A stretch of 61,398 nt of DNA from Myxococcales bacterium (GCA_016794525.1 JAEUJY010000017.1:1-61398), one strand, 5' to 3'. Shown: positions 7,309-29,079, counted from the stretch's first letter. The notes: a model not told the origin generated them from the letters alone. Numbers and translations: made by a program.

Positions 7309-9036
7309 CTAGGGCTGGTGCGGCGGCGCCTCCACCGCGCGGTCGAAGCGCAGATCGGCGCTCCCTTCGCTGGTGCCGATCCGCCGCGTCCGCGCCAGCC
7401 AGACGTAGGTCGAGCCGTCGGCGCCGCGGGCGCGCCGGTGCCCACGTCGCACGTGCGTGCCCTCACGCGGCACGTGCTCTTCACGGACCCGTAGCGGCGT
7501 CCCACCGCCGGCCGCCAGGATGCGCCCCTCCGGGGTAGGCAGCGTCGGCGCCGCCGCGTCGGTGGTGAGCAGACCGGCCAGCTCGAGGACCACTTCGTGA
7601 CTGGGCGCCAGCTTCACCGGCTGCAGCGGAAACCAGTGACGAGGTACTGGCGACTGCAGGCGGTAGCGCAGCGCGGCGCCAGCGGGCAGCGGCGCTTCGC
7701 TCGGCGCGGGCGCGGACGGCCGATCCGCCGCGCGGCGACCGCCGCCCAGCGCGCCCTGGGTCGTGTGCTCGACCGCCCAGACCAGGTTGGCCATCTCGTC
7801 GCGCAAGAAGCGCACCTCCTCGATGGGCGGGCCTTCCTGGACCGACGCCGCGCACGATCGTGGCACCAGGTGGAACGGCGCGAGCGCGGCGCTGTCGTCG
7901 GCGATCGCGAACATCGCGAAGCGACCGTTGCCGGCCGTGCCCGACTCGGCCCGAGGCACGTCGGTGGCTTCACCGAACACGTCGATGACCGTCACCTCGC
8001 TCGCGCACAGCGAGCCGCAGGGCTGCTCGAACGGGACGAGGTACCAGTCGTTGCCGTGGACCAGCATGAAGTCGAGCAGCAGCATCGACGCCAGGTTGCG
8101 GCGGTCGGGGCGGATCGCGTCGATCGGAAACCGCGCGTCCTCGAAGTCCCAGAACCGTTCGTTAGGCATGCCGCGGAAGCGCACCGGTCCGGGGATCACC
8201 GCACGGATCTGGTGGAGCGTCTCCCCTGCCGGGATCGCCGACGACGGGGCCTCGAGGCGGCGATCGAACGCGAACCAGTCGAGGTCGCCGCGCCGGTCCG
8301 GGTTCGCCGTGAACGACTCCGGCGTGGCGCCGGAGACCGCGCTGTAGACGGCCGGCGCCGCGCTGAGCGTCTCCGTGCGCCACCCGGGCGGCGCGCCCTG
8401 GCCTGGTCCGCCGAGGCCTTGCTCGATCCAGGCGGTGAGGCTCGCGATCGCCGCGGCGGCCTGGCCGCGCCATGCCCCGCCAACCGTCCAAGGCACGCCC
8501 GGGACTGGTGCCGGCGTCGGGTCGGCGCCAGGCGGTGGTGGCGGGACCGGCAGGCGGGTCGCGGCCCACAGCGCCTGGCCGTCGATCGCCCGGCCGCGCC
8601 ACAAGGCGCGCAGCCGCGCTGCGCGCGGGTCGTCATCGGCGGTGTCCGGGATCGGGTAGGCCGCCACGAACAGCGGCCGCAGGTGCGCCGCCCCTGCATC
8701 GGCCAGCAGCCGCTCGAACGTCTGGCCGATCTCGACCGCGCGCGCGAGGTCGTCGGGCGACGGTGGCTCGGCTGTCAGGCTGGCCTCGAGCGGCGCCGCC
8801 GGAGGCAGCGGCGCCGCCGGGCCGCCCGCCTCGCCCCAGGCGGTCAGCGGCGCCGTCGAGGTCGACACGCGCACGTAGGCCGGCGCGCCGGCGTCTTCGC
8901 CCTGGAACTCGCCGAGCTGCCACTGGCGCGCGAGCAGCCACGCTGGGTCGTAGGCGCGGGCCGCGAGCGCCTCGCTGAGGTCCACCGCGCGCGGGCGAGG
9001 CTCGAGCCGGTTCCAGTAGGTGATGGACGACGGCAT
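7309..9036 (-). CDS. Uncharacterised 575-aa protein, last gene of the large operon
   Basis: 575 residues, no signal peptide or membrane helix. The N-terminus MPSSITYWNRLEPRPRA is followed by AYDPAWLLARQWQLGEFQGE. From memory, WLLARQWQLGEFQGEDAG-type sequences occur in hypothetical proteins of actinobacteria and other bacteria; I know no function. A proline/alanine-rich stretch lies near residues 180-200. The middle (about 280-370) has aromatic-rich segments such as NERFWDFEDARFPID and MLVHGNDWYLVPFE. The start ATG is two bases beyond the TGA of the 1418-aa gene (TGA-CC-ATG), so translation is probably coupled. Conserved presence with the next two genes would suggest one complex, but that is inference. 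Confidence 0.8.
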   Translation of the reverse strand: MPSSITYWNRLEPRPRAVDLSEALAARAYDPAWLLARQWQLGEFQGEDAGAPAYVRVSTSTAPLTAWGEAGGPAAPLPPAAPLEASLTAEPPSPDDLARAVEIGQTFERLLADAGAAHLRPLFVAAYPIPDTADDDPRAARLRALWRGRAIDGQALWAATRLPVPPPPPGADPTPAPVPGVPWTVGGAWRGQAAAAIASLTAWIEQGLGGPGQGAPPGWRTETLSAAPAVYSAVSGATPESFTANPDRRGDLDWFAFDRRLEAPSSAIPAGETLHQIRAVIPGPVRFRGMPNERFWDFEDARFPIDAIRPDRRNLASMLLLDFMLVHGNDWYLVPFEQPCGSLCASEVTVIDVFGEATDVPRAESGTAGNGRFAMFAIADDSAALAPFHLVPRSCAASVQEGPPIEEVRFLRDEMANLVWAVEHTTQGALGGGRRAADRPSAPAPSEAPLPAGAALRYRLQSPVPRHWFPLQPVKLAPSHEVVLELAGLLTTDAAAPTLPTPEGRILAAGGGTPLRVREEHVPREGTHVRRGHRRARGADGSTYVWLARTRRIGTSEGSADLRFDRAVEAPPHQP

Positions 9037-9038
9037 GG

Positions 9039-12000
9039 TCACTCCGCTCCGAGGATGAGGTTCTCGTCGATCGTGTGGACGGCGAGATCGTGCGAGATCG
9101 CGTCCTCGCCGACGTTCGCCGCGAGGAACGTGGTCGGCGCCAGGAGACCGAGCCCGCCGAGTTGCTCGGCGTCGACCGCGCGGATCTTGGCGAGGTCGAG
9201 CGTCTCGTTGACGATCGCCTCGAGCCCCGGCAGCGTCCATGGTCCCTTGCGCGTCGGCGGCACGGCCAGGAGGACGCACTGCGCGGCCTCGGCGCCCGGC
9301 GCGTCATGATGCACGGCGAAACACGTGTCCTGCGCCGCGGCCGGGATGAGCTCCGACCACTCGTCGAAGACGACGCCAGAGATGGCGCCACCGGTCCCCG
9401 CTGCCGGCACCCCGAACGGCACGTCGGCGACGAGCGACGCCGTGCCCGACCGCGGTCGCAGCCCGATGGACGGATCGAACGTGCCACCGGCCCAGGGCCG
9501 CTCGAGGTCGTGCGGGAACTGCGCCACCTGCAGCTCGATGGGCGTCGCCGTCAGGGCCTCGCCGACCAGGTGCGCCAACCGCAGCGCCGCGAGCGGCTCG
9601 CGCACCGCGGCAGCACCCTCGAGCCACCGCCGGACCGCGCGCGGGTCGCCGACGATCGTCGGGCCGTGGGCGACCGCCGCCTCGATCTCGGCTCCGTTGT
9701 TCGGCACGAAGGTCGGCAGCACGGTGAAGTCGCCCCCAAAGGCTGCCTGGATGCGCGTGACGTCGCTGGCAGCGCTTGTGCACGCGGCGATCGCGCGATC
9801 GGCATCTGCCAGCGCGCGCGCCGCCGTTGCGCGCAGCGTGACCCGCTCGTCAGGATTCTCATCGTCGACGCCGCGTGGGATGGCGCTGCGGACGCCAAAG
9901 TCCACGACCTGCCAGAGCCGGCCGCGGAGGTCGCGCGCCGCCACGACTGAATCGTCCATCTCTGCGTAGGCGAGCGCGGCGGCGAGATTCGCCCGCGCCG
10001 CGGTGAGCTCCGCGACCGTCGCGGTCGCGCGCGCGAGCAGCTCGTTCTCATCTGCCGTACTGACGACGTCGGCTCCGACGCCGGCGAGGTCAGTCGCGGT
10101 CAGCGGCCGGCTGTGCCGCAGCGCCTCATCGAGCAGGCGCGCCAGGTCGAGGAGATCCGGGAAGGACACCACCGCGATCTCCGGGTGCCGCTCGTACGAG
10201 ACGTCCACGTCGTGGCTGGCGCCGATGCCGGTCGCGGCGTAGCCGCGCACGCGCGCCTCGAGTTCGCCCTGGCCGCTCGCGTCGGTCGTTCGAGTCAACG
10301 CGAGGAGATCGAGCGGACCGATGCCGAGTTCGGACGGCGTCACCCAGACCGAGAACCGCGTGCTCGTGCCGTCCGATCCGGTCCACGGGTAGGTGACCTT
10401 GCACTGCACGAAGTTCGGGAGCGGCAAGCGCTGCGCGACCCACGCCGCGAGCCGCGGCTCGGCGCGTGAGCGTGGCGTCTCGGGCCAGGTCGCGGGCGGC
10501 GGCGCGCCAAGCAGGAGACCGACCCGGTGCATGACGCTGGTGCCGCGTTGCGGCGTCCGCGCCACCTCCGGGTCCGGGATCGCGCCGCCGCCGGCCAGGG
10601 ACGCGAGCGTCGCCGCGGCGCGCTCGGTCTTGCCCTGGATCGTCTGGTGTACCGACTCGGCCAGGAGCACATCCGCGACCGCGTCGACGTCATGGTCGAG
10701 CGCGGCGAGCACCGCCGCGACCGCGGCTTGATGAGCTCCGGCGACGAACGATAGGGTCGTCGACCACGGCAGGGTCGCGAGGTCGAGCCCGGCGAACGCG
10801 GTCCGGACGGCCAGACCGTCAGCGACGTTGCGCGCCGCGATGCGCTCCCCTTGCAGCTCTGCCGCGATCGCGGGATCTCGCCCGAGCGGAAACGCCGTAC
10901 GGAATGGCGCGATGTACTGATCGAGTTGCCGATCGTGCAGCGCTCGCTCGAGGCGGAAGCCGAGGATCGCGCCCAGGGGCTGCCCCTGGCGGACGCCGTC
11001 GAGCAGCTCGAGCGCGCCACGGACCCGGGGCGACGACAGATCGACCGCGGCCTGATCGCGCAGCGCGCCGGTCCGGGTTAGCTGGGCGTTGCGCAGCACC
11101 GCGGCGGTCGCCGCGTGCGCCGCCGACGGCGCGTGGATGAAGCCGCCGGCCGTGCCAGGCCGTGGCGCGACGCGGGGGCGCAGGTTCTCGACCCAGCCAT
11201 AGGCGCCGAGGTACACGCCTTCCGGGTTGGTCTCGCGCATCGCCGCCAGGCGCCGGGCGGCCAAGGACGTCAGCCAGGCGTCGAGGCGGTGCGAGCAGGT
11301 GTCGAGGGTCTCGGCGGCGAGCCGCGCGAGCTCGGCCGTCGGTGTCTCCGACAGGGTCGCGAGGGCCGCGCGGTGTTCGCGCACCGTCGCCCGGATCGCG
11401 TCGGTCGACGCGGGATCGGTGAGCCAGGTGCCGAGCGGGTGACCATCGGTCACGCCGGCGATGGGGGCGTCGAGGCGCTCCCACGCGGTCAGCCGCGTCT
11501 CGGTTCCCGGACCGATGCGGTACAGCTCGCGCTCGACTTGGTCGATGGCGTCGGCCGTGCCGGCGACCACCGCGATCCCGGTGCCCACCCGCGCGAGCTC
11601 GACCAAGGTCGCCTGGCGCAGCAGGTGGTACAGGAGCGGGTTGCCGAAGGCCGGGTGCTGCGCGCCGCCGGCCTGGCGGAGCGCCTCCACCGTGGCCGCG
11701 CGGATCTCCTCGATGTAGTTCGGTTCGAGCCGGCTCACCTCGGAGAGCGGCGCGGTGGTCACCAGCGCGCGCCCGATCCGGAGCGCCCGATCCGCCAGGG
11801 TCATCTGGGCCAGCCGTGGCGCGAGGCCGGTCAGCCCAGCCTCGGCGAGCGCCTGGGCGATGAGCGTCGGGCGCGCCAGATCGAGCCCCTCGGCGCTCGA
11901 GCCGAGGAGCACGAGCACGTTGTGGATGAAGGCTGGCCCGTAGACCGCGCGGGACCGTAGCTCGCGGCTCTGGGCCCCGCGGGTCAGCACGCCGAGCAGG

Positions 12001-13295
12001 TCGGCGTCGGGATCGTTCGACGCGCCGACGCGTGGCACGTTCGCGGCGCGCGCGATGAACGCTGCGCGCCACGCGACCAGGAGGGAGGCGAGCCCGTGCT
12101 CGATCGGATCGCTCGGCGCGCTCGCGGGCTCCCACGCCGTGATCGAGGTCGTCGGGAGGACGCCATAGGGCACGCGACCGATGCGCACGAGCGGCAGCGG
12201 ACCGCGCCCGCGCACGTGATCGCGGAAGTGCGCGCGCACGTCGGCGATCTGCGTCGGCGACAGGTGCGGCGCGATCATCTGCTCGAGGTAGTAGCCGAGC
12301 GTGCATGGCCACAGCGCGACGTTCATCGCCGCCGCGCGGGCCTGCTCGAGACCGTCGGTACCCGCGACGTGCGCGAACGGCAGCGGCTTGGCCACCGCGC
12401 CGAGCGCCGTCGCCAGGGCGCGGCCGTCGGTGCCTGGAAGGCTCGCGCTGCCGCCGCGCTCGACCGCGAAGCGACCCGCCGCGTCGTCCGGTGGCGGGTA
12501 TCCGGACGGCGCGCTCGCGGTGTTGTTGGTCGGCGTCCCTTGCGGAACCAGCGCGACGCCCCGCGTGAAGCGATGCGCGGCGAGCAGCTCGGTGAGCTCC
12601 GCGGCGGCGACCGTCTCGCTCGATTGCGTGCGGACGCCGAGCACCACGACGCGATCGAAGCCCTCGGCCAGGTCGTCCGCCGTGAGCGGCATCGTGACCG
12701 CCATGCCGACGCGCTCGGCCTCGGCGTAGTCCATGGTCCAGAGCAACGAGCGCTCGATCGTGAGGTCCCCGAGGGCGACGAGGTCCGCGTCCCCTTCGCC
12801 GACGTCGGGCGCGAACGACAGCGCGAGTGGCTCGATGATGTCGCCGCTCGACACGCGCGCCCGCTCGATACCGCCACGATAGGCGATGACGGTCCAGGCG
12901 CGCGGCAGCGCGGCGGCGCGCACCTCGGGCAAGCGGTCGTCTCTCAGCTCGACCGCCGGGAACGCCGGCGCCTGCGATGGACGCGCCGCGAGGTTCGTCG
13001 GTGTCGAGACCTCGACGAGCCAGGCGGCGCGCTCCGGGGCATACCGCGTCGTCAACGCGCGCCAGGCGTCGAGTTCGGCGCTTGGCTCCCAGCCAGTCGT
13101 CCAGTAGGCGATCGCGTCCTGCCACTCGGCGCTGGTCGGCGCGCGACGGTGGCTGTCGGCGAAGATCTCGTCGGGGTAGATGCGGATCCGCAGCGCCGGC
13201 GGGCTCTGCGAGAAGCGCGTCTCCAGGCGAACCGGGAGGAGCGCGATCGGAAAATCGGAGCTGAGCCCTTGGAGCTCGAGCGCAAGGTCACCCAT
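9039..13295 (-). CDS. Uncharacterised giant protein (1418 aa)
   Basis: 1418 residues without signal peptide or membrane helix. It opens with MGDLALELQGLSSDFPIALL, then PVRLETRF and RIRIYPDEIFADSH, a block I recall from other large hypothetical proteins but cannot tie to a function. Further recognisable points are PLVRIGRVPYGVLPTTSI (near residue 375), several Ala/Leu-rich helical stretches in the middle, and a beta-rich C-terminus containing SGVVFDEWSELIPA. The ATG at 13295 follows a good ribosome-binding site (GAGGAAG, five bases before). It lies 22 nt after the preceding stop and two bases before the next start. Its size and position with the 925- and 575-aa proteins point to a multi-protein assembly. 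Confidence 0.8.
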   Translation of the reverse strand: MGDLALELQGLSSDFPIALLPVRLETRFSQSPPALRIRIYPDEIFADSHRRAPTSAEWQDAIAYWTTGWEPSAELDAWRALTTRYAPERAAWLVEVSTPTNLAARPSQAPAFPAVELRDDRLPEVRAAALPRAWTVIAYRGGIERARVSSGDIIEPLALSFAPDVGEGDADLVALGDLTIERSLLWTMDYAEAERVGMAVTMPLTADDLAEGFDRVVVLGVRTQSSETVAAAELTELLAAHRFTRGVALVPQGTPTNNTASAPSGYPPPDDAAGRFAVERGGSASLPGTDGRALATALGAVAKPLPFAHVAGTDGLEQARAAAMNVALWPCTLGYYLEQMIAPHLSPTQIADVRAHFRDHVRGRGPLPLVRIGRVPYGVLPTTSITAWEPASAPSDPIEHGLASLLVAWRAAFIARAANVPRVGASNDPDADLLGVLTRGAQSRELRSRAVYGPAFIHNVLVLLGSSAEGLDLARPTLIAQALAEAGLTGLAPRLAQMTLADRALRIGRALVTTAPLSEVSRLEPNYIEEIRAATVEALRQAGGAQHPAFGNPLLYHLLRQATLVELARVGTGIAVVAGTADAIDQVERELYRIGPGTETRLTAWERLDAPIAGVTDGHPLGTWLTDPASTDAIRATVREHRAALATLSETPTAELARLAAETLDTCSHRLDAWLTSLAARRLAAMRETNPEGVYLGAYGWVENLRPRVAPRPGTAGGFIHAPSAAHAATAAVLRNAQLTRTGALRDQAAVDLSSPRVRGALELLDGVRQGQPLGAILGFRLERALHDRQLDQYIAPFRTAFPLGRDPAIAAELQGERIAARNVADGLAVRTAFAGLDLATLPWSTTLSFVAGAHQAAVAAVLAALDHDVDAVADVLLAESVHQTIQGKTERAAATLASLAGGGAIPDPEVARTPQRGTSVMHRVGLLLGAPPPATWPETPRSRAEPRLAAWVAQRLPLPNFVQCKVTYPWTGSDGTSTRFSVWVTPSELGIGPLDLLALTRTTDASGQGELEARVRGYAATGIGASHDVDVSYERHPEIAVVSFPDLLDLARLLDEALRHSRPLTATDLAGVGADVVSTADENELLARATATVAELTAARANLAAALAYAEMDDSVVAARDLRGRLWQVVDFGVRSAIPRGVDDENPDERVTLRATAARALADADRAIAACTSAASDVTRIQAAFGGDFTVLPTFVPNNGAEIEAAVAHGPTIVGDPRAVRRWLEGAAAVREPLAALRLAHLVGEALTATPIELQVAQFPHDLERPWAGGTFDPSIGLRPRSGTASLVADVPFGVPAAGTGGAISGVVFDEWSELIPAAAQDTCFAVHHDAPGAEAAQCVLLAVPPTRKGPWTLPGLEAIVNETLDLAKIRAVDAEQLGGLGLLAPTTFLAANVGEDAISHDLAVHTIDENLILGAE

Positions 13296-13317
13296 GTACT
13301 TCCTCGGCGTGAAACGG

Positions 13318-16095
13318 TCAGGGCAGGAGGTCGGCGCCGTAGAGCGCGACGCGCACCGGCCGCTGGAGCGTGATGACGGCGTGGTCGGCGCCTCGCGCCA
13401 CGCGCCCACCCGGCGGACCGGCGTGCCAGACTGGCCCCGTCGCGGTCTCGAGCGCGCCGGTCGCAGGCTCGGCGCGGTTCAGGTCGATGTAGTCGATCGT
13501 CGTGACCGGCGCTGGCGCGGTGATCAGGTGCTCCCACGCCAGGTCGTCCCAGGTGCCGGGCGCGGTCGTGGCGCCGCTGTCCAGACCGAAGCGCGGGTCG
13601 CCCGGCTGCTCCTCGAAGACGAAGAACCAGCCCGGAACCCCGGCGGCCAGATCGCCGCGCACCTCGGCCTCCGTCAGCGCGAAGCCGAACAGCGCGACGT
13701 CGGGTTCGATGCGCGCCGTGAACACCGGGCGCCGCTGCTGGTGGTCGGCCGCCAGGCCGAGGACGCCCGACGCGATCGCCGCGCGCTGGGCGTAGACCAG
13801 CGTGCCCGGGTAGCGGCGAAGCGCCTCCCCGCGCACCACCAGCACCAGTTCGTCGCCGGCGCCTGGGCGCGCCGGGTGCTCGCCCAGCGGCGTCGCGCCC
13901 CAGCCATGGATCGGAGTGATGTCCGGCGCCGGGGCTGCGCCGTTCGGTTCCCAGAACTGACGGAAGTAGCTGCCGCGCTGATCCGACGGGTACTCGCGCC
14001 ACAGGAGCTCGCGAGCGAACTCGTGGTTGAGCCCGACCATGTACGCCTCGATGAACGGCTGGTTGGTCTTGGCCAACGTCACGCGATCGGCGGGCACGTC
14101 GAAGAGGCCCGGCAGGATCCAGTCGGGTGACAGCGCCGCGAGCGGGCGGAACATCGGCTGCGGGAACTCCGGGTGCGCCATGACCGGCTCGAGCGGATCG
14201 GGCGGCGCCCAGCTGAAGCCGGCGGCAGGGATCGTGCGGACGACGAAGCCCTGCGCGATCGTCGTGCGCGGGTCGATCGCCGACTGGACGACCGTGCGCA
14301 GCGCCGGAATCCCGAGCTGGCGCAAGATCTGGCCTTTGTCGGGCACGATCTCACGCCCGAGCAGCGCCTTGGCGGCGGAGCGAAACGCGGCCATCGACGG
14401 GCTGTCCTCGCCGCGTCCGGTGTCCCACGTGTCGGGCGCCTTCCCGTCGACCGGGTCCCACGCACACGCCGCCTCCGCGATCGGCGCGTTCTCGACGTCC
14501 TTGCCGCTCGGGAATGGCGCCTTGGTCACGCCTTCGAACCAGGCCACGGTCGGCACGTCCGAGGACAGCGGTGGCGGAGTCTCGGCCAACACCTGGAGAG
14601 ACGCGTCGTTGACGCGCTCGAGCGCGCTCGGAGCGACCCGGTCAGGGCGCCCCTGACGGCGGCCCACCGGCCCGAGCGGCCGGGCCAAACGGCGCAGGCC
14701 CCCGCCGACGAGCGCGTGGCGCGCCGGGCTGGCGTCGAACGAGGCCCTCACGGTCCGCCCGGCCCCGCGCACCTGGGCATGCACGGTCGCGGTCAGCGAG
14801 AGCGCGCTCGCGTCGTCGGCCGCGACGACGTGCCGCTGGTACAGCCGCTCGCCCACCGCGCGCGCCACCTGCGCCGCACGCAGCTGCTGATTCGCCTCGC
14901 GGATCCCGGCGACCTGCTCCCAGGCCGAGGCCATCAGGTCCTCTTGCTTCTGTTGCACGACGGCGGTGCCGGCCGCCGCGGCGACGCGGGGCTCGGGCCC
15001 GGTGTTGAGCGTCGCGAACCACCCCGGGGCATCGGTCGCGAGGCGCTCGCGCTTGGCGTGCCAGGCGCCGTAGAGCGGCGGCGCGACCACCGGCGTGCCG
15101 CCGCTCGCGCGCACGTCGGCCGGGATGCTCAGGAGGTCTGTCAGCCCGGCGGTGAACGCTGGGGCGATCGCCACCGGCGTCGCGGTGCCCGGCGGCCGCA
15201 GCGCACCTCCCAGCGGCAGCGGCGCCGCCGTGGGCGCGGGCAACCCCGCGCCCGGTTGCGCCACGTCGAGGCCGCGGGTCCCGACCGTCGCGGGCAGCGG
15301 CGCGGGCTTGAGCCGGCGCACCAGCGACTCGAAGTCGCCGTCGAACCCGGTCGTGAACGTCCACCGATGGTAGATCGGCAGCTCGAGCGGCGCCGCGAGC
15401 GTCGTGCCGGCCCACGCGGCTTCCAGCGTCGTGCCGCTGATCGCGAGACGGAGGCCGGCGCGCCGTCCGACCTCGAACGTCGGCACGAGGAGCATCCAGT
15501 ACTTGGTGCGCGGATCGAGGCGACGCGGGCACAGCAGGCGCGAGAGGCAGCGGTGCGGTGACTTCGTCACGACCTCGAGCAACGGGAGATCGTCGTCGCC
15601 GCTCACCTGCACGTGGGCCCAGGCCCAGGTCTGGTCGGGCGGAGGCATCGGCGTCCCCGTCTTGACGACGACCGACTCGAGCGAGCGCCCGGCGGTCGCC
15701 GGCACGATCGCCTCGAGCTCGGTCTCTTTGAACGCGAGCAGGCACAGCCATGGCCGCACGCGTCCGCTCGCGTCCTCGCGGGCAGGCGTGTACCGCCAGG
15801 GCAGGTCGGCCTGGTCGAACTCGACGGCCGGGAAGTAGTTCGGCTCGGCGTCGAGCGTGTGCACGGGTGGCGAGCGGCGGCTGATCGACCGGGCATCGAA
15901 GCCGACGATGTCAGCGGGACCGACGAGCTCCAGCGTCGTGCTCGCCGTGAGCCCATCGGTGGCGGCGTTCACCGTCACGGTCGCGTCCAGGGTCGCCCGT
16001 ACCGCGGCGGTCGCGGCATCGGGCGTCGTCAGGTACGCGGTGCCGCCGCGTCGGACCCAGGGGTAGAACCGCAACGCCGCGCGATCGTCACTCAT
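13318..16095 (-). CDS. Uncharacterised large protein (925 aa)
   Basis: 925 residues, no signal peptide or membrane segment. The start ATG overlaps the stop of the DUF6603-like gene by four bases (ATGA), with GAGGTGG just upstream as ribosome-binding site. N-terminal part: beta-rich, including VGPADIVGFDARSISR and EPNYFPAVEFDQADLPWRYT. Conserved-looking block near residues 675-705: FIEAYMVGLNHEFARELLWR, YPSDQRGSYFRQFW. Near residue 815: VPGWFFVFEEQPGDPRFGLD. I have a memory of such blocks in hypothetical proteins of other phyla but know no assigned function. It likely works with its operon neighbours of 1418 and 575 aa. Confidence 0.8.
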   Translation of the reverse strand: MSDDRAALRFYPWVRRGGTAYLTTPDAATAAVRATLDATVTVNAATDGLTASTTLELVGPADIVGFDARSISRRSPPVHTLDAEPNYFPAVEFDQADLPWRYTPAREDASGRVRPWLCLLAFKETELEAIVPATAGRSLESVVVKTGTPMPPPDQTWAWAHVQVSGDDDLPLLEVVTKSPHRCLSRLLCPRRLDPRTKYWMLLVPTFEVGRRAGLRLAISGTTLEAAWAGTTLAAPLELPIYHRWTFTTGFDGDFESLVRRLKPAPLPATVGTRGLDVAQPGAGLPAPTAAPLPLGGALRPPGTATPVAIAPAFTAGLTDLLSIPADVRASGGTPVVAPPLYGAWHAKRERLATDAPGWFATLNTGPEPRVAAAAGTAVVQQKQEDLMASAWEQVAGIREANQQLRAAQVARAVGERLYQRHVVAADDASALSLTATVHAQVRGAGRTVRASFDASPARHALVGGGLRRLARPLGPVGRRQGRPDRVAPSALERVNDASLQVLAETPPPLSSDVPTVAWFEGVTKAPFPSGKDVENAPIAEAACAWDPVDGKAPDTWDTGRGEDSPSMAAFRSAAKALLGREIVPDKGQILRQLGIPALRTVVQSAIDPRTTIAQGFVVRTIPAAGFSWAPPDPLEPVMAHPEFPQPMFRPLAALSPDWILPGLFDVPADRVTLAKTNQPFIEAYMVGLNHEFARELLWREYPSDQRGSYFRQFWEPNGAAPAPDITPIHGWGATPLGEHPARPGAGDELVLVVRGEALRRYPGTLVYAQRAAIASGVLGLAADHQQRRPVFTARIEPDVALFGFALTEAEVRGDLAAGVPGWFFVFEEQPGDPRFGLDSGATTAPGTWDDLAWEHLITAPAPVTTIDYIDLNRAEPATGALETATGPVWHAGPPGGRVARGADHAVITLQRPVRVALYGADLLP

Positions 16096-19000: not shown

Positions 19001-19493
19001 GCGGGCGCCGCAACAACGTGCCCGTGGCGTCGACGATGGGCGGTTGGAGTCCCGCCTCGCGATCTCGGGTCACGAGCCCGAGCAGGACCGCAGCCTGAAA
19101 GGCGGCGGGCTTCGCGCGGAGGGCCACGGCGAGCATCACCTCGAGCAGGTCAACGACGAACCGCCCGAACTCGGGTGGCGCCGTGCTGAGGTCGAAACCC
19201 TCGGTCAGCGCGAACGCCTGGTCGACCAACGCTTGAACCGCGGCCAGCGCCTCGAGCGCCGTCGCCACATCGGTCGGCGGTGACTCAATCCAGCGCTCGA
19301 GTGAATCAAGCCCCGACGCGAGGGCCGCGAATCGTTCGACAACCTGATTCGTCGGTACGCCTGTGACGCGATCGAGTTCCCAGCCCAGCGCGCCCACGAG
19401 CTCATTGCCGAACTCCCGTGACGCCCCAGCGATGCGAACCGTGGTGCCGACCGCCCGCGCCCAACGCACAAGCTGATGGATCACCCCGATCAC
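16092..19493 (-). CDS. Large beta-rich protein resembling the DUF6603 family
   Basis: 1133 residues. GTG start at 19493, chosen because it overlaps the upstream stop as GTGA. The N-terminal ~180 residues are helical. A long beta-rich body with alternating hydrophobic residues follows, including LGFTLDGIGGLIAIHRRVDT (near residue 580), then GRHVFGPAVKFGWGTPTMVR and ASAGPLNIKGGLGFETLLTF. These match my recollection of DUF6603 proteins, which are uncharacterised. A Cys-containing segment (CLSLWFVDLCVPIHVSFGG) lies near residue 865. No signal peptide. The long run of amphipathic strands could form a groove- or barrel-like fold; that is only a structural guess. Confidence 0.75.
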   Translation of the reverse strand: MIGVIHQLVRWARAVGTTVRIAGASREFGNELVGALGWELDRVTGVPTNQVVERFAALASGLDSLERWIESPPTDVATALEALAAVQALVDQAFALTEGFDLSTAPPEFGRFVVDLLEVMLAVALRAKPAAFQAAVLLGLVTRDREAGLQPPIVDATGTLLRRPRIVDRVRLDRLPALVEAPVATLRQEYVAGDDLGSEVGARAVASRLLPRLAEFLAWCGLETSYGLKSRYGYDFGPATADLRHMMAVTHRVDGVPGTLGAVLAIVPGTRGGPGLLIRPWGTGELSSPIGAWTLTTRIAGSLEALLVTTGGLQTRGAGAAAEVELRLARPPAQVPNGSFDPGAVSVAARIALAASTRDVAIRAELRGARLALGSTTHGDGFLARVAPSGAAASTFDAVLEWTLGGGLRFCGSGDLAARIPVGGASHVIALDAIRIGVRTVSGVVALEVGGDVRLTVGPVELLAENVGLALQVDPSAPGGPLGLADLSFGPRWPDGVGVHIDAGVVSGGGRIQVETGPSAGRRYLGTFALAVRGVAAGAVAVLDATGAGYSLVAAIGAEFPAVPLGLGFTLDGIGGLIAIHRRVDTDALRASLRTPAGMGDIFFPADPVAQADRITTDLATYFPSANGRHVFGPAVKFGWGTPTMVRGELAVLLELPAPARGVVLGTVSAKLPTVDHAIVDLNVDVVGEVDFAQKRVAIDASLRNSTIAGFPITGDMAFRMAWGSPPSFALAIGGFHSQFPTPPGFPELRRIQIPLGAGDDPRLDAQGFLALTSNTAQIGARIDLYASAGPLNIKGGLGFETLLTFSPFQLQVDVWAGVALRRGTSTLASIHFDGHLSGPKPWRLDGKACLSLWFVDLCVPIHVSFGGGDAVALPSRQIWPALHEALATPAAWASAVPPGLAAAVTAPASGAVPATRLEPCATLTVTQKVVPLDRQITAFAHGRPEGVDRFRVTGVQFGASAVPAADITSVTEWFAPAQFEEMSEADKLSRPGFEQMVGGVSIGAATIRAGAPLVRALDYDTVVVVNGERQVASGYRPTRDQQIEGTLVATSARPPLRATGAAAFLPPAGQPPRLRLVEETFVIASTDELAPRWDLAAAGTRGQVELALRAHLAANPGDAGRLQVVPSFEVAA

Positions 19494-21925: not shown

Positions 21926-24147
21926 CGCTTGGACGCTCCCAGCTCGTATGTGCAGCCCTCCGGTGTGACCGCAAGGAACGACTTACGCCGCGCGACGATC
22001 CGGCAGCCAGTGCTGTCCGGCGGAAGGTCATCGGCGCGCGCCCACGACGCGGTCGCGGGATTCCAGAGGATCGTGCGATCGCAGGCAGCAATCGCGACGC
22101 GGCCGTCGGCGAGCACACGGGCGGCCTGTGGGTCGCGCGGGGCGTCGAACTCGGGCAGCGCCAGGGCCGACGACGCGGTCGGCGCCCAAGTCTCGATCGG
22201 CAGGCCGTCGCGTCTCGGCGCGGTGCTGGCGCCAGCCGAGCCGCCGGCGATGAGCACCGCGCCGTCGGCGAGCTGGACCGCGAGTGGCGACGCCCGGGCG
22301 ACACGGAGCTTGCCCGCGTTGGCAAAGCCGTTCGTCCGCGGGTCGAGCGCCTGGAGCAGGTCGAGCGGCGACACCTCGTCGCCTTCCGGGAGGCCGCCGA
22401 GCGCAAGCACCCGGCCATCCTGCAGGACCAGCGCACCGACGCTGTCGCGCCGCGGCACCGCGTTGATGGTTGTCACGCGCTCGGTGGCCGGATCCCAGAC
22501 GAACACGCCTCCGAACTTCCACGTGGCATAGCGGATGCTCCAGTGGCCACCCGCCATCCGCCTGGGGACGCGGCGCTTTGCCTGGCCGCCGAGAAACGCG
22601 ACCCGGCCGTCCTGCAGCGCGACCGCCGACTGCTCGGTCAACGGCACGGGGAAGCGCCCCGCGGCGCTCCAGGCGCCAGTCCTGGGGTCCCAGATCTCGA
22701 GCGTGTCGTGGTCGATGACGCCCTCGTCATAGTCCGAGGGGCGCGGCATCGTCATCGAGCGCCAGTAGGTGACGTCGATGATGCGGTTGTGGTCCGTGCC
22801 GCCGGCGACCAGCACACGTCCATCGGCGAGGAGCGTCGCGGTGTGATGGGTCCGCGGCGCGGACATCGCACCGGTCTCGGCCCAGACACCGGTCTCAGGG
22901 TCCACGACGATCGCCCGCGCCGAGGTCTGGGAGTCGCCCACGTTGCCCCCAGCCACGAGCAGCCGCCCATCGGCGAGCGGCGTCACCGTTGCGCCGGCCA
23001 GGACGTGAGGCACCGCGGCGAGCCGGTGCCACGCGAGGTCCATCGTGGCGGCGGCGCTCCAGATCGTGGTGCGTCCGGTCGCGTCGACGGCGAGGATGCG
23101 GCCATCCGGGAGCGCCGCGAACACCCGGTCGACGTCATGGGGGCTCGCGATGCGCTGCCACCTATCGGAGCGTGTCGAGAAGAGACTCGCACTGGTTCTT
23201 GAACGGTTCGGACGCGCGACCAGGACACGGTCGTCTCCCAGCGGCGCTGAGCGTATCCCCCCTCCGCGGTATGACTCTGGCGGTGGCGCAATCTCGCGCC
23301 ACGTCGAGGAAGAGGGGGCCCAGAGTAGCCATCCGCGGGTCGACCTCGCGATGATATGTTGCCCTGCCTCGGCGATAGCGTAGTTCAGCGACTCACTTGG
23401 TCGCGCCTGAGCAATCAGGACAGCAGCGATATCTGGCGCCGGAGATCGCATCACGGATGTGTCGTCCAGGAACCACGTGATCGTCCGGTCCGGTAGAGCA
23501 AGCACCCCGCGAACGCCGTAGTACGGCGTTCGGTATGGGGTGAGGGCATTCGCGAGACCACGCGATGACCACGCAAACGCCCTGAGGAAGCTGTCGTGGT
23601 CGAACCCAACCACGAGCACCTCGCTTCGGCCGAGTGGCAGAAGGCGCTGCAAGGTGAACGGCGCCGCCGCGTGCGCGACCTCCATCCACTGGTTAGTGGC
23701 CACCTCGTAGACGATGAACACGGCTTCACCGCGGCGCCAATCGCTCGGCGGCCCAGGCACCTGGACACCGACGAAGATGCGGCCATCGTCGAGTTCAACG
23801 CCGGCGCCGTTGCACAGCGCGATCGGCAGCGGCGCGAGCCGGCGCCACGCCATGGTCGCGGGCTCGAACAGCTCGACGTCGGTGACACAGGGCGCGTCTG
23901 CGCCCCCGACCCGACCACCTGCGAACAACACACGCCCACCCGAAAGGGCCAGCATGAGCCCCTCGGTGCGGCGCGTCGACGCGGACGGCCCGGCGCTCCA
24001 CGCACCCAGCGGCGGCTCCTCGAGCGGCGCGCTGCAGGTGCCCATCGGCGGCAACGGCGCCAGCGGCGGTGGACGGCACCCGCCGCACACCAGCGTGAGT
24101 GCCACCACGAGCCCCATCCCCCGTCCGCCCGGACCAATTCCGCTCAT
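21922..24147 (-). CDS. Kelch-type beta-propeller lipoprotein
   Basis: 741 residues from the ATG at 24147; an internal ATG at 24117 (MGLVVALTLVCGGC) is a possible alternative. The lipobox-like VCGGC followed by RPPPLAPLPP indicates a lipoprotein. The rest consists of kelch/galactose-oxidase-like blades with recurring units such as LADGRLLVAGGNVGD, LADGRVLVAGGTDHN, LQDGRVLALGG and LADGAVLIAGGSAG. Such propellers usually bind proteins or sugars at the surface. The C-terminal half is about 90% identical by eye to the next gene upstream, so the pair arose by tandem duplication. The stop overlaps the start of the PhoD-like gene (ATGA). Confidence 0.85.
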   Translation of the reverse strand: MSGIGPGGRGMGLVVALTLVCGGCRPPPLAPLPPMGTCSAPLEEPPLGAWSAGPSASTRRTEGLMLALSGGRVLFAGGRVGGADAPCVTDVELFEPATMAWRRLAPLPIALCNGAGVELDDGRIFVGVQVPGPPSDWRRGEAVFIVYEVATNQWMEVAHAAAPFTLQRLLPLGRSEVLVVGFDHDSFLRAFAWSSRGLANALTPYRTPYYGVRGVLALPDRTITWFLDDTSVMRSPAPDIAAVLIAQARPSESLNYAIAEAGQHIIARSTRGWLLWAPSSSTWREIAPPPESYRGGGIRSAPLGDDRVLVARPNRSRTSASLFSTRSDRWQRIASPHDVDRVFAALPDGRILAVDATGRTTIWSAAATMDLAWHRLAAVPHVLAGATVTPLADGRLLVAGGNVGDSQTSARAIVVDPETGVWAETGAMSAPRTHHTATLLADGRVLVAGGTDHNRIIDVTYWRSMTMPRPSDYDEGVIDHDTLEIWDPRTGAWSAAGRFPVPLTEQSAVALQDGRVAFLGGQAKRRVPRRMAGGHWSIRYATWKFGGVFVWDPATERVTTINAVPRRDSVGALVLQDGRVLALGGLPEGDEVSPLDLLQALDPRTNGFANAGKLRVARASPLAVQLADGAVLIAGGSAGASTAPRRDGLPIETWAPTASSALALPEFDAPRDPQAARVLADGRVAIAACDRTILWNPATASWARADDLPPDSTGCRIVARRKSFLAVTPEGCTYELGASKR

Positions 24148-24243
24148 GGCGTGGACCTTATGCTTCAATGCTATACTCGTCAAGCCGGTCCGGTGCACGA
24201 CGTGATCCGGGACAACAGGCCCCCCCTGTTCCGTGCCGCTGAT

Positions 24244-26832
24244 TCACCAACAGCGGGTGATATGTGACGCATCAGTCGTCGCCAAGCGCCGCATTCCAAT
24301 CCGTTGCGACGCTCCCAGCTCATAGGTGCAGCCCTCGGGGGTGATCGCGAGGAACGACGCACCCCGCGCGACGATCCGGCAGCCGGCGCTGTCGGGCGGC
24401 AGGTCGTCGGCACGCGCCCACGACGCGGTCGCGGGATTCCAGAGGATCGTGCGGTCGCACGCAGCGATCGCGACGCGGCCGTCGGCGAGCACGCGGGCGG
24501 CCTGTGGGTCGCGCGGAGCGTCGAACTCGGGCAGCGCCGGGGCCGACGACGCGGTCGGCGCCCACGTCTCGATCGGCAGGCCGGCGCGGCGCGGCGCGGT
24601 GCTGGCGCCCGCCGAACCGCCGGCGACGAGCACGGTGCCGTCGGCGAGCTGGAGCGCGAGCGGCGATGCCCGCGCGACGCGGAGCTTGCCCACCGTGGCA
24701 AAGCCGTTGGTCCGCGGGTCGAGCGCCTGGAGCAGGTCGAGCGGCGCCGGCTCGTTGCCTTCCGGGACGCCGCCGAGCGCAAGCACTCGGCCATCCTGCA
24801 GGACCAGCGCGCCGACGCGATCGCGGCGCGGCGTCGCGTTGATGTCGGTCACGCGCGCGGTGGCCGGATCCCAGACGAGCACGCCGCCGAACTTCCACGT
24901 CGCGTAGCGGATGCTCCAGTGGCCACCGGCCATCCGCTTGGGGACGCGGCGGCTCGCGTGACCGCCGACAAAGGCGACGCGGCCGTCCTGCAGCACGACC
25001 GCGGTCTGCTCGGTGAGCGGCACGGGGAAGCGTCCCGCGGCGCTCCAGGCGCCTGTCCTGGGGTCCCAGACTTCGAGCGAGTCGTGGTCGATGAGGCCCT
25101 CGTCGTAGTCCGCCGGGCGCGGCATCGTCATCGAGCGCCAGTAGGTGACGTCGATGATGCGGTTGTGGTCGGTGCCGCCGGCCACCAGCACGCGGCCGTC
25201 GGCGAGGAGCGTCGCGGTGTGATGGATCCGTGGCGTCGACATCGCGCCGGTCTCGGCCCAGGCGCCAGTCTCGGGATCGACGACGATCGCCCGCGCCGAG
25301 GTCTGGGAGTCGCCGACGTTGCCGCCGGCCACGAGCAACCGGCCGTCGGCGAGCGGCGTTACTGTCGCGCCAGCCAGGACCTGCGGAACCGCGGCGAGCC
25401 GATGCCAGCTGAGGTCCATCGTGGCGGCGGCGCTCCAGAGCGTGGTGCGTCCGGTCGCGTCGACCGCGAGGATGCGGCCGTCCGGGAGCGCCGCGAACAA
25501 CCGGTCGACGTCGTGAGGGCTCGCGATGCGCTGCCACGTATCGGTGGGTATCGAGAAGATGCTTGCGCTGGTGTTGGAGCGGTTCGGACGCGCGATCAAG
25601 ACGCGGTCGACGCGGTCACCTTCCAGCAGCGCCGCGCGTAGCCCGCCTGTTCGGTCGTGTTCCGGCGGCGACGCAATCTCGCGCCACATCGAGGAGGAGG
25701 GGGCCCAGAGTAGCCATCCCCTTGCAGACCTCGCAATGACGTGTTGCGCGGCCACAATGGCGTAACCGAGCGACTCTCGCGGTCGCGCGGCAGCGATCAG
25801 GACGGGCGCGAGGTCCGGCGCCGGCGACCGCAGCACGGATGTGTCGTCTAGGAACCACGTGACTGTTCGGTCGCGTGAGGTGAGTACCCCGCGGACCCCG
25901 TAGTACGGCGTTCGTGGCGGAGGGAAGGATTTCGTGAGTCCATTCGATGACCATGTGAACGCACTGATGAGGCTGTCTTGGTCGAACCCAGCCAAGAATA
26001 CTTCGTTTCTGCCAAGTGGCAGAACTCGCTGCAGGTTGAACGGCGCCGGGACGTGCGCCACTTCAGTCCACAGACTGGTCGACGGCTCGTAGACGATGAA
26101 GACGGCCTCGCCGTATCGCCAGTTGCTGGGCGACCCAGGCACCTGGATGCCGACGAAGATGCGGCCGTCGTCGAGCTCGACGCCATCGCCGCTGCACATC
26201 GCGATCGGCAGCGGCGCGAGCTTGCGCCACGCCATGGTCGTAGGCTCGAACAGCTCGACGTCGGTGACACAGGGCGCGTCTGCGTCCCCGACCCGGCCCC
26301 CGCGAACAGCACACGACCACCCGACAGCGTCATCATGAGGCCGCCGGTGCGTCGCGTCGGTGCGGACGGCCCCGCGGTCCACGCGCCGAGGGCTGGCGCC
26401 TCGAGCGGCGCGCTGCAAGTACCGATCGGCGGCAAGGGCGCCAGCGGCGGTGGGCGACACCCGGCCCACAGCCCCACAACCGCGAGCACCAGCCAGAATC
26501 GCCGCCTGCCCCCGCCGGCGCCCGCGCGCGTGCGAGCACGAGCACATCACTCCCAAGACAGTGTCGTGCACTGAGACTTGCACTGGGACCTTGAGGATGT
26601 CGTTCCCTTGACCGTCTTGAATCGCAAGGAAGTCGATGTCCGTGCCCTTCGCCGACGCCGACGCGGTAAGCCGGCGGCTCGATAGCGTCGCGAGCGACAC
26701 ACTCTGCGCAAGCGCAAGCGGGTTGTTGACGAGAATCCAGGCGTTCGTGCCTAGATGGTTCATGAACAGTTCGAGTTCAACGGGCTGCCCGCGCAAGAGG
26801 TGTAGCTCGGCACTCGGATACAGCTTGATCAT
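24244..26832 (-). CDS. Kelch-type propeller paralogue, N-terminally chimeric or frameshifted
   Basis: A single 862-residue frame starting MIKLYPSAELHLL, whose ATG overlaps the preceding stop (ATGA). Residues 1-~95 are a small beta-rich domain unlike the neighbouring paralogue. Residues ~97-176 are out of frame with respect to that paralogue: its lipobox region (WAGCRPPPLAPLPP) and first blade are present, but in another frame. From residue ~177 (VTDVELFEP) onward the kelch repeats align in frame to the end, with 18 extra C-terminal residues. A one-base deletion in the C run at 26297-26301 relative to the paralogue explains the shift. Either this is a decayed lipoprotein gene fused to an upstream small gene, or the fusion is functional. 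Confidence 0.65.
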   Translation of the reverse strand: MIKLYPSAELHLLRGQPVELELFMNHLGTNAWILVNNPLALAQSVSLATLSSRRLTASASAKGTDIDFLAIQDGQGNDILKVPVQVSVHDTVLGVMCSCSHARGRRRGQAAILAGARGCGAVGRVSPTAAGALAADRYLQRAARGASPRRVDRGAVRTDATHRRPHDDAVGWSCAVRGGRVGDADAPCVTDVELFEPTTMAWRKLAPLPIAMCSGDGVELDDGRIFVGIQVPGSPSNWRYGEAVFIVYEPSTSLWTEVAHVPAPFNLQRVLPLGRNEVFLAGFDQDSLISAFTWSSNGLTKSFPPPRTPYYGVRGVLTSRDRTVTWFLDDTSVLRSPAPDLAPVLIAAARPRESLGYAIVAAQHVIARSARGWLLWAPSSSMWREIASPPEHDRTGGLRAALLEGDRVDRVLIARPNRSNTSASIFSIPTDTWQRIASPHDVDRLFAALPDGRILAVDATGRTTLWSAAATMDLSWHRLAAVPQVLAGATVTPLADGRLLVAGGNVGDSQTSARAIVVDPETGAWAETGAMSTPRIHHTATLLADGRVLVAGGTDHNRIIDVTYWRSMTMPRPADYDEGLIDHDSLEVWDPRTGAWSAAGRFPVPLTEQTAVVLQDGRVAFVGGHASRRVPKRMAGGHWSIRYATWKFGGVLVWDPATARVTDINATPRRDRVGALVLQDGRVLALGGVPEGNEPAPLDLLQALDPRTNGFATVGKLRVARASPLALQLADGTVLVAGGSAGASTAPRRAGLPIETWAPTASSAPALPEFDAPRDPQAARVLADGRVAIAACDRTILWNPATASWARADDLPPDSAGCRIVARGASFLAITPEGCTYELGASQRIGMRRLATTDASHITRCW

Positions 26833-27446
26833 CGCGCCACCGCAGGTGGTGGTACGAGCTTGTGAGTTTCGTAAGTGTAGACGCCGGGCGCCGTATACTG
26901 GACGCCTTCGTGGGCCGTTGTCGCGGGCGCCGTACCCCAGCCGCGCCGCGTACGCGCAAGCTCACCGTGTTTCCACTCGAGCCAGGTGCCGGCAGGGAAT
27001 CCCTCGACGCAGAAGCCCTGGACCAAGAGCGAACCATCGGGGGCGACCACCTCGACAGGTCCGTCGAGTCGCTTGTCGGCGCCTCGGCACACGAGGGCGT
27101 GACTTCCAGCGGGAGCCTCGAATGCGATGCCACAAAGCGCTATCCCACTCAGACACGACTCCATCGGCCAACCAATCGGGTCGTAGACGAGCTGTCCGGG
27201 AGCTAGCTCACGGGGCGGCTCGATACTAGGCCAAAAGTGCCCGGCTTCATATCCGATGGCGCACGTCATCGGGTATTCTTCCGGCTTGGGCGAAGTGTCT
27301 GAGCATTCAAACGCCACCGCCCGAGATCTTCCTGCGAGCGGAGGTGCTGGAACTGCTTTCACTGGCGACACGCCCCGACCACAGCAAGCCGAGACGAAGG
27401 AGAGAAGGAGAACAAGGAGTAGCCGCGCCGCGCCGCCGAAGCTCAT
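26829..27446 (-). CDS. Small lipoprotein of unknown function
   Basis: 205 residues starting MSFGGAARLLLVLLLSFVSAC, with lipobox VSAC followed by CGRG. The mature part is rich in Gly/Pro and cysteines (SCLSGIALCGIAFEAP, ALVCRGADKRLDGPVEV, GFCVEGFPAGTWLEWKHGEL). It ends with YTYETHKLVPPPAVAR. The segment FPAGTWLEWKHGELAR resembles MORN-like antitoxin-type repeats only loosely. The ATG overlaps the stop of the upstream exported protein gene (ATGA), and its stop overlaps the start of the chimeric kelch gene (ATGA). It is less GC-rich than most of the window. No family recognised. Confidence 0.75.
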   Translation of the reverse strand: MSFGGAARLLLVLLLSFVSACCGRGVSPVKAVPAPPLAGRSRAVAFECSDTSPKPEEYPMTCAIGYEAGHFWPSIEPPRELAPGQLVYDPIGWPMESCLSGIALCGIAFEAPAGSHALVCRGADKRLDGPVEVVAPDGSLLVQGFCVEGFPAGTWLEWKHGELARTRRGWGTAPATTAHEGVQYTAPGVYTYETHKLVPPPAVAR

Positions 27447-28496
27447 TGGGCACTCACTAGGAAATGGACGTTCCGCATCAGTCGCGCAGTGTATGACCCA
27501 GCGGCGCAGATGTACTCGAGCAGTTTCGCCCGATCGAACACCTGCCGCAGGTATGGCAGTCGTCCTGGCGCCGCTGCCGCCGAGTCCACTCGGACGATGC
27601 CAAGAGCGTCGAACACAGCATGCCAGCCCGGGAAGTGGCTGCGCAGTTGCTCGACGAGCAACGCGTCGACGAGTTGCCCTGGGAGCTCGGCGCGCATCGC
27701 GGGCAGGAGATCGGCCGCGGCCGTGAGCGCGTCGATGGCGCCCCAAAGCGAGCAGCACTGACGGGATCAGCACGCCGAGGTCGACCTCGATGCCGTCACC
27801 GCCGCTGCAGCCCGCGCAGCCGCGTCTGGCGACCGGTGGCGGATAGCGCTCGTAGCACTCGTACTCGGCGTAGTCGGTCACCATCGGTGGCGTGGCGATG
27901 AAGGTCGTGCGGTAGAGGGCGAACCGGCCGCGCTCGCCGACCCCGACCCGGTACGGGCGCGCGCCGGTGAACGTGAGCTCGGCACCGGCCTCGCCGAGCA
28001 CGACCGCGTCGACCTTCACCCGCACGCGCACCGTGGGCAGCGGCCGGCTCGCCCGGACGTCGATGGTCTGGCCAGCCCCGACCGCGACGGCGCACGTGAT
28101 CGGCTCGGCGTCGTTGGCGCACAACGTGACGTCGTAGGTGTCGGGCGAGAGCGCGCACACGCGAAGACGATCGAGTCGCGGCGCGCCGGGCACCGCCGTG
28201 ATTGACGACGGCGTCGTGATCAGCCGTCCGGCCGACCGGACGGTCGCCGTGACGCCGTTCGCGCAGCCCACCAGGCGGGCCGTGAGACAGGTCTCGCCGC
28301 CCGTGGCCACGAGCTCGGGCCAGCACCGCGCGCGTGGCACATCGACCTCGAGCACCGTCCCGTCGACGACCACCGTGGGGGCGGGTGGACAGCGGGGGGC
28401 GGGGCGCGCTTCATTCCCCTCGGCCCGGTGGTCTTCGGCCAGCGTGGCGCCGAGCGACAGCACCACGGTGAGTCCGAGTCGACCTGCCGCGCTCAT
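27443..28496 (-). pseudogene. Exported protein gene with an apparent one-base frameshift
   Basis: The first frame starts at ATG 28496 with a signal peptide (MSAAGRLGLTVVLSLGATLA) and a Cys-rich beta domain through CAGCSGGDGIEVDLGVLIPS. It then turns Arg-rich and out of character at the G4 run (27741-27744 on the plus strand). In another frame a coherent helical protein continues as GAIDALTAAADLLPAMRAEL and ends with MRNVHFLVSAQ at 27443, overlapping the next start (ATGA). Removing one G joins both parts into one ~350-residue protein. The total span (1054 nt) is one base over a multiple of three. It may be a genuine mutation or a sequencing error. It is the promoter-proximal gene of the operon. 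No family recognised. Confidence 0.7.
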
Positions 28497-28564: not shown

Positions 28565-28594
28565 CCTAGGACTCTTGCGATGGGCATGTCAAGC
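28565..28594 (-). promoter_or_regulatory. Candidate sigma-70-type promoter of the nine-gene operon
   Basis: On the minus strand a perfect TTGACA (28594-28589) is followed after 18 nt by TAGGGT (28570-28565; the TANNNT pattern). Transcription would start near 28558 and give a leader of about 60 nt before the ATG at 28496. It is the only perfect -35 hexamer I noticed, and it sits exactly upstream of the first gene of the block. Confidence 0.5.
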
Positions 28595-28596
28595 TT

Positions 28597-28613
28597 CGCG
28601 TCAAACGCGAACC
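28597..28613. promoter_or_regulatory. Inverted repeat next to the operon -35 box (possible operator)
   Basis: TTCGCGT and ACGCGAA form a 7-bp inverted repeat around three bases, two bases upstream of TTGACA. Such symmetry next to a -35 box fits a dimeric regulator site. It could instead be a short hairpin; no T-run follows, so a terminator is unlikely. Confidence 0.4.
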
Positions 28614-29065: not shown

Positions 29066-29079
29066 CCGGCGGCGACCGA

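What the first reader, a model, noticed from the sequence alone, without database searches (positions are those of the whole stretch)
7309..28496. Nine-gene operon of large uncharacterised proteins: candidate new system
Nine genes on one strand, six of eight junctions overlapping by four bases and one separated by two, code for three unassigned proteins (575, 1418, 925 aa), a DUF6603-like protein, a PhoD-like phosphatase, two kelch propellers, a lipoprotein and an exported protein. The 1418/925/575-aa proteins have distinctive conserved-looking blocks (PVRLETRF; NHEFARELLWREYPSDQRG; WLLARQWQLGEFQGE) that I recall only from hypothetical proteins. Tight coupling implies fixed stoichiometry, and the propeller lipoproteins imply a surface role.
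Basis: partly seen in the sequence, partly recalled or inferred. Interest (0 to 1): 0.85.

Follow-up and report, generated by a model that had tools for sequence, protein, structure and literature searches.

The report
Conserved four-gene module with swappable enzyme
This stretch holds an undescribed set of four large proteins, kept together in the same order in at least twelve bacterial phyla and in salt-loving archaea, with a neighbouring gene that encodes one of at least seven unrelated enzymes, as if the four proteins were a common carrier for exchangeable enzymes.

Summary
The operon is real, with corrections: five (not six) of eight junctions are 4-base overlaps, and two of the nine genes (second kelch, first exported protein) are frameshifted. 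The three unassigned proteins match nothing in Pfam, NCBIfam, PHROGs, PADLOC or PDB. The system claim holds strongly: DUF6603(D)-C925-B1418-A575 stands in the same order on one strand in 72 of 72 GTDB loci holding all four (eleven named bacterial phyla), plus Gemmatimonadota and haloarchaeal plasmids. The gene directly upstream of D is a variable enzyme slot: PhoD-like phosphatase (this window), M64-like metalloprotease, trypsin-like or subtilisin-like protease, phospholipase D, tyrosinase or galactose oxidase, with catalytic motifs mostly kept. Enzyme class changes at least 23 times on the C+A tree of 49 labelled loci. Trypsin- and subtilisin-type versions share one C-terminal ~130-residue domain, also found as a separate gene: a candidate docking adapter. 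D is predicted as a >30-strand amphipathic beta sheet; C has a confident model without a known fold match. Core proteins lack recognisable signal peptides. Best reading: a carrier complex for exchangeable enzymes, D making lipid or membrane contact. Gene set, order and enzyme swapping are shown; assembly, delivery and target are inferred.

The parts
7309..9036 (-). A575: last gene of the core; no known family; in some relatives it carries PA14/F5-8C or LTD domains
   Evidence: ORF; no hit in Pfam, NCBIfam, PHROGs, PADLOC; homologues downstream of B across phyla; extra domains
9039..13295 (-). B1418: third core gene; N-terminal PVRLETRF block; its C-terminal ~110 aa also occur alone in the genome's second locus
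   Evidence: ORF; no family or PDB match; 61-row alignment; second locus
13318..16095 (-). C925: second core gene; AlphaFold2 pLDDT 89, beta-sandwich-like domains around a helical region with one 41-residue helix
   Evidence: ORF; model; no PDB or viral fold match with E <= 0.001; 345 relatives in GTDB contigs
16092..19493 (-). D: DUF6603 protein; N-terminal helical part (about 1-220), then more than 30 antiparallel amphipathic strands (about 246-866)
   Evidence: PF20248 E 2e-106; model pLDDT 81, pTM 0.56; face analysis; fold comparison
19490..21925 (-). X slot: PhoD-like metallophosphoesterase with metal-site motifs GDQIYAD, DDHE, GDLHYS intact; the exchangeable enzyme
   Evidence: PF09423 36.3 bits, cut-off 27; motifs read from the translation; the same slot holds other enzyme classes in relatives
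21922..24147 (-). kelch1: kelch propeller with lipoprotein-like N-terminus; accessory (kelch recurs in actinomycete cassettes)
   Evidence: Kelch_6 1.3e-22; hydrophobic N-terminus followed by GGC; actinomycete kelch genes and D-kelch fusions
24244..26489 (-). kelch2: paralogue of kelch1, frame shift near 26290 in a G-rich run (error or pseudogene)
   Evidence: three-frame translation; Kelch_6 3.3e-20
26540..26832 (-). N-terminal stretch of the ORF from 26832 (MIKLYPSAELHLLRGQPV...), about 90 aa, unrelated to kelch; end unclear
   Evidence: 4-base overlap with the lipoprotein ORF
26829..27446 (-). small lipoprotein-like protein, 205 aa; not part of the conserved module
27443..28496 (-). exported protein, N-terminal signal-like segment, frame shift near 27745; not part of the conserved module

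Best explanation
D, C, B and A are a constant four-protein carrier, and the gene directly upstream of D supplies one exchangeable enzyme (here a PhoD-like phosphodiesterase/phosphatase). I propose that the proteins assemble in the cytosol, with B and C as scaffold, D's large amphipathic beta sheet making the lipid or membrane contact, propellers (kelch, FG-GAP) and domains such as PA14 in A, where present, giving target or surface binding, and the enzyme docked to the carrier (in the protease versions through a shared C-terminal adapter domain). The loaded complex would then act on a target outside the producing cell or at an envelope, after lysis or by an unknown non-Sec route. Shown: the conserved gene set and order, the enzyme slot with mostly intact catalytic motifs, repeated exchange of enzyme class, the shared adapter, the predicted amphipathic sheet in D. 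Inferred: assembly into one complex, enzyme loading, lipid contact, release and target.
For: All 72 GTDB loci that hold all four genes have D-C-B-A in order on one strand; same order in Gemmatirosa, Streptomyces, Rhizobium and haloarchaeal plasmids. 4-base overlaps recur at X/D (16 of 69) and D/C (26 of 75). Among 284 Myxococcota genomes the 5 with A are all among the 10 with DUF6603 over its cut-off (P 1.7e-8). Upstream slot, of 80 GTDB loci: PhoD 17, M64 15, trypsin-like 12, S8 7, PLD 5, tyrosinase 2, galactose oxidase 2; catalytic motifs in most. Enzyme class needs at least 23 changes on the C+A tree of 49 labelled loci, minimum 6; e.g. S8 and trypsin versions in sister Streptomyces rows at 100% support. 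Shared ~130-aa C-terminal domain in trypsin and S8 versions and as a separate gene (hhalign 98.1%, E 1.2e-13). D: one strand face 4% charged, the other 31%; hydropathy difference 2.97 against 1.47 +/- 0.18 shuffled; nearest folds apoB-100 and porin-type barrels. Signal-like N-termini in 0 of 74 A, 1 of 61 B, 0 of 76 C, 6 of 55 D rows. PA14, F5/8C, LTD, FG-GAP and PG_binding domains in some members.
Against: No experiment, no complex prediction, no known homologue of A, B or C. PhoD, M64, PLD, tyrosinase and galactose-oxidase versions do not share the adapter by profile comparison, so a candidate docking domain is shown for proteases only. No export or lysis gene recurs at the locus within the flanks seen. 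The genome's second locus keeps X, D, A and only the end of B, without C, so B and C are not always needed. Fold matches of D have rmsd 11-15 A. The signal-peptide check is a hydrophobicity heuristic and many rows are trimmed at the N-terminus.
Confidence: 0.45

Rival explanations
1. Intracellular conflict (defence or cell-death) system: the constant core senses infection or damage and unleashes the variable enzyme inside the producing cell, as in NTP-dependent conflict systems with exchangeable effectors.
For: Repeated displacement of effectors in a conserved operon context is named as typical of conflict systems (PMC7159879) and is met here; proteases and an adapter shared between unrelated proteases fit; patchy, partly plasmid-borne spread; no signal peptides.
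Against: No NTPase family matched in the window's nine proteins; A-D and the PhoD-like protein match no PADLOC model; no nuclease among the identified enzymes; tyrosinase, galactose oxidase and PhoD are odd suicide effectors; PA14, LTD and FG-GAP domains are usually extracellular.
Confidence: 0.25
2. Surface or extracellular enzyme-display scaffold for nutrient gain or envelope maintenance: a house-keeping device that holds hydrolases or oxidases at the cell surface.
For: The enzymes are classes often found secreted (phosphatase, proteases, PLD, oxidases); kelch1 and two neighbouring window proteins have signal-like N-termini; glycan-, wall- or adhesion-type domains in some members.
Against: The core and nearly all enzyme proteins lack signal-like or membrane segments; rapid exchange of enzyme class is more usual for conflict or delivery than for nutrition.
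Confidence: 0.2
3. Intracellular lipid-particle coat: D wraps a lipid core like apolipoprotein B, and A-C and the enzyme decorate the particle.
For: Best structural row for D is apoB-100 (Z 14.4, rmsd 11.1 A, 293 aligned); amphipathic sheet.
Against: Porin barrels score equally (Z 13-14) and rmsd is above 11 A, so this may be only a common meander; no lipid-synthesis genes recur beside the cassette.
Confidence: 0.1

Closest known systems
DUF6603 (Pfam PF20248)
   Same: D is a clear member (E 2e-106).
   Different: The family has no described function; no held paper names it. Its fixed partners C, B, A and the enzyme slot are new here.
NTP-dependent conflict systems with effector-associated domains (Kaur et al. 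2020, PMC7159879)
   Same: Constant core, repeatedly displaced effectors including peptidases, small adapter domains, spread in complex-lifestyle bacteria.
   Different: No MoxR, STAND or GTPase component matched; different effector set; no shared core family found.
Extracellular contractile injection systems (e.g. PMC8213781)
   Same: Constant machine with exchangeable cargo, components without signal peptides, environmental bacteria and archaea (partly own knowledge).
   Different: No sheath, tube or baseplate match in A-D; sheath genes in the tested genomes lie on other contigs or far away.
PhoD-like phosphatases (PF09423)
   Same: Window X protein, 36.3 bits, metal-site motifs intact.
   Different: No convincing signal peptide; sits in an operon slot shared with unrelated enzymes.
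Apolipoprotein B / outer-membrane beta barrels
   Same: Long amphipathic antiparallel meander in D.
   Different: No sequence relation seen; rmsd 11-15 A; D occurs in monoderms and archaea and has no signal-like N-terminus in the window.

Membership tests
DUF6603 (PF20248) | profile match above curated cut-off | tested here: met
   357 bits against 27
PhoD-like phosphatase (PF09423) | profile match above cut-off | tested here: met
   36.3 bits against 27
PhoD-like phosphatase (PF09423) | metal-site motifs (GDQxY, DDHE, GDxH) | tested here: met
   present in the 811-aa protein; in most relatives
PhoD-like phosphatase (PF09423) | phosphodiesterase/phosphatase activity | not testable with these tools
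   needs an enzyme assay
eCIS / contractile injection | sheath gene in the locus | tested here: not met
   in 14 genomes PF04984 hits lie on other contigs or more than 60 kb from DUF6603; no tail family in PHROGs for A-D
NTP-dependent conflict systems | exchangeable effectors in a constant operon | tested here: met
   at least 23 changes of enzyme class
NTP-dependent conflict systems | core NTPase | tested here: not met
   no NTPase family in the window's nine proteins at E <= 1
Known anti-phage systems (PADLOC) | match to a curated defence protein | tested here: not met
   A-D and PhoD none; only a generic subtilase/IetS match for one S8 enzyme
Outer-membrane beta barrel | signal peptide and outer-membrane host | tested here: not met
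   no signal-like N-terminus in D of the window; D in actinomycetes, Bacillota and haloarchaea
Outer-membrane beta barrel | closed barrel fold | tested here: inconclusive
   Z 13-14 at rmsd 11-12 A; pTM 0.56
ApoB/vitellogenin lipid-binding sheet | lipid-binding amphipathic sheet | tested here: inconclusive
   amphipathic strands; Z 14.4 at rmsd 11.1 A
Polymorphic toxin systems | immunity gene next to the effector | tested here: inconclusive
   no recurrent partner gene at the enzyme in neighbour clustering, but small genes were not searched well

The most novel reading that the evidence does not exclude
An undescribed class of delivery device unrelated to phage tails: a carrier of three proteins without known relatives and a giant amphipathic beta-sheet protein that ferries interchangeable enzymes (phosphatase, proteases, phospholipase D, oxidases) to or across lipid membranes, shared by bacteria and archaea.
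Probability: 0.3. Interest if true: 0.95.

Novelty: categorically new. Interest (0 to 1): 0.8.

Why it matters
If right, hundreds of genomes (345 matched by one strict pattern scan, a lower bound) carry an unnamed module whose core is unrelated to known secretion, defence or toxin families yet shows the hallmark of such systems: repeated replacement of the enzyme. It gives DUF6603 a context, offers a defined candidate docking domain to test, and could be a protein carrier with natural interchangeability.

Tried and rejected
A phage origin: no relative in IMG/VR with the C profile; the only phage-record hit is one unverified faecal record without annotation. Contractile injection: no linked sheath. 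Known families for A, B, C: Pfam, NCBIfam, PHROGs, PADLOC, PDB sequence and profile searches gave nothing above noise; weak coiled-coil matches of B (E 0.006) and of D's helical start (E 1.3e-6 to designed helical bundles) were taken as composition. Homology between A, B and C: no profile match A/C or B/C; A/B 48%, E 1.8e-4 over 104 columns, not trusted. Fold search for C: nothing with E <= 0.001, best VIA Z 4.8. One adapter for all enzyme classes: not found beyond S8 and trypsin; a galactose-oxidase/D match turned out to be kelch repeats. Literature: no held paper with DUF6603 or PF20248.

Full report
What is in the window. The minus strand from 28496 to 7309 holds an operon-like run. Core proteins, in transcription order, are D (DUF6603, 19493-16092), C925 (16095-13318), B1418 (13295-9039) and A575 (9036-7309), preceded by a PhoD-like protein (21925-19490), a kelch lipoprotein (24147-21922), a second kelch, a lipoprotein-like ORF and an exported-protein ORF. 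Pfam recognises only DUF6603 (E 2e-106), PhoD (4.7e-9) and kelch; A, B and C match nothing in Pfam, NCBIfam, PHROGs or PADLOC, nor PDB chains beyond noise. Five junctions are 4-base overlaps, one of them only across a frame shift; B/A are 2 apart, C/B 22, kelch2/kelch1 96. The exported gene and kelch2 are frameshifted, and a further kelch fragment lies at 28566-29270, so the upstream part looks unsettled; the core is intact.

A conserved module. Homologues of B appear in relatives of the same family and on plasmids of Gemmatirosa, Natrinema, Salinigranum, Streptomyces and Rhizobium, with DUF6603, C, B and A in the same order. A scan of GTDB contigs with the C alignment gave 345 relatives; the 80 kept lie in Actinomycetota 29, Bacteroidota 15, Pseudomonadota 13, Myxococcota 7, Nitrospirota 5, Chloroflexota 3, Verrucomicrobiota 2, Bacillota 2 and one each of Cyanobacteriota, Acidobacteriota and Planctomycetota, with one unassigned. 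All four genes are found in 72 of them and all 72 have D-C-B-A in order on one strand; the other eight lack one or two genes, most of them beside a contig end, and one (L061) shows no D within the 9.8 kb held upstream. The loci were chosen by C alone. In 284 Myxococcota genomes A occurs in 5, all among the 10 with DUF6603 over its cut-off (P 1.7e-8). Exceptions exist: the window genome's second locus has PhoD, DUF6603, a 130-aa piece of B and A, without C, and some Myxococcota have DUF6603 with only a weak C-like domain nearby.

The enzyme slot. In most loci a gene of about 400-1050 aa ends at the start of D, with an exact 4-base overlap in 16 of 69 (an undercount because starts were taken mechanically). 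Its identity varies: PhoD-like 17, M64-like 15, trypsin-like 12, subtilase 7, phospholipase D 5, tyrosinase 2, galactose-oxidase-like 2 of the 80 loci, the rest unassigned or truncated. Classes rest on Pfam for representatives and on clustering or motifs for the rest. Catalytic motifs are kept in most: HExxH in 12 of 14 M64-like proteins examined, two HKD motifs in all five PLD proteins, H and GDSG motifs in the trypsin-like ones, GDQIY/DDHE/GDxH in most PhoD-like ones; several subtilases did not match my simple motif patterns although Pfam recognises the domain. On a tree of C plus A (68 rows, quick IQ-TREE) the class changes at least 23 times among 49 labelled rows, against a possible minimum of 6 and a shuffled mean of 29.4: some inheritance, much exchange. 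Two Streptomyces rows that are sisters at 100% differ in class (S8 against trypsin).

A shared adapter. Trypsin-like and subtilisin-like slot proteins, unrelated as enzymes, share a C-terminal helical-looking domain of about 130 residues with a conserved RRVxVAWHR...GP block; it also occurs as a separate 138-140-aa gene in three Bacteroidota cassettes. Profile comparison of the two classes: 98.1%, E 1.2e-13, confined to that end. Other classes lack it. This is the most direct hint of docking, but its partner is unknown.

Structures. C gave a confident AlphaFold2 model (pLDDT 89.1, pTM 0.77) of beta-rich domains around a helical region; Foldseek found nothing with E <= 0.001 in PDB or BFVD and VIA-align reached Z 4.8 at most. 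D (pLDDT 80.9, pTM 0.56) has a helical N-terminus followed by more than 30 antiparallel strands; the hydrophobic faces are 4% charged and the others 31%, a contrast beyond all of 1000 within-strand shuffles. Nearest folds are an apoB-100 piece and porins (Z 13-14, rmsd above 10 A), which says amphipathic meander, not family. It makes lipid or membrane contact plausible, no more.

Location. A, B, C and D lack signal-like N-termini (0/74, 1/61, 0/76, 6/55 rows; kelch1, lipoprotein and exported ORF as positive controls reach 2.4-3.3). Yet some members carry PA14, F5/8C, LTD, FG-GAP or peptidoglycan-binding domains, and actinomycetes add kelch propellers fused to D and as a gene between D and C. 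The first argues for cytosolic assembly, the second for action at a surface.

Mechanism and rivals. I favour a cytosolically assembled carrier with an exchangeable enzyme, used on targets outside the cell or at an envelope (0.45). Rivals: intracellular conflict system (0.25), surface enzyme scaffold (0.2), lipid-particle coat (0.1). Effector displacement in a constant operon is the published hallmark of conflict systems (PMC7159879), but no NTPase, PADLOC match or nuclease was seen. Contractile injection is not supported: sheath genes are unlinked.

Limits. Only the 80 best of 345 loci were read; flanks of about 10 kb miss distant partners; gene starts were chosen mechanically; structures of A and B were not predicted; literature was searched in an open-licence subset only. 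'Categorically new' refers to the core having no relative among the families searched, not to a demonstrated new function.

Noticed in passing
window 28566-29270 (-): Kelch fragment joined to an argJ-like fragment upstream of the operon, similar to the two kelch genes: debris of recombination between repeats.
   Followed up: no
window 26280-26300 and 27740-27750: Frame shifts in kelch2 (G-rich run) and in the exported gene: assembly error or pseudogenes.
   Followed up: partly
own genome C128:139215-148400 (L029): Second, reduced locus: PhoD-like, a 391-aa ORF, DUF6603, a 130-aa B C-terminal piece and A, no C.
   Followed up: partly
G142:C245, G259:C84, G268:C191: DUF6603 followed about 1 kb or more downstream by a weak match to a C-like N-terminal domain: a second DUF6603 lineage.
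   Followed up: no
L016 (MT835531.1): Unverified faecal 'bacteriophage' record holding C, B and A genes; probably a misassigned bacterial contig.
   Followed up: no
L053, L063, L068 upstream of D: Bacteroidota cassettes have two trypsin-like genes plus a separate adapter gene before D.
   Followed up: partly
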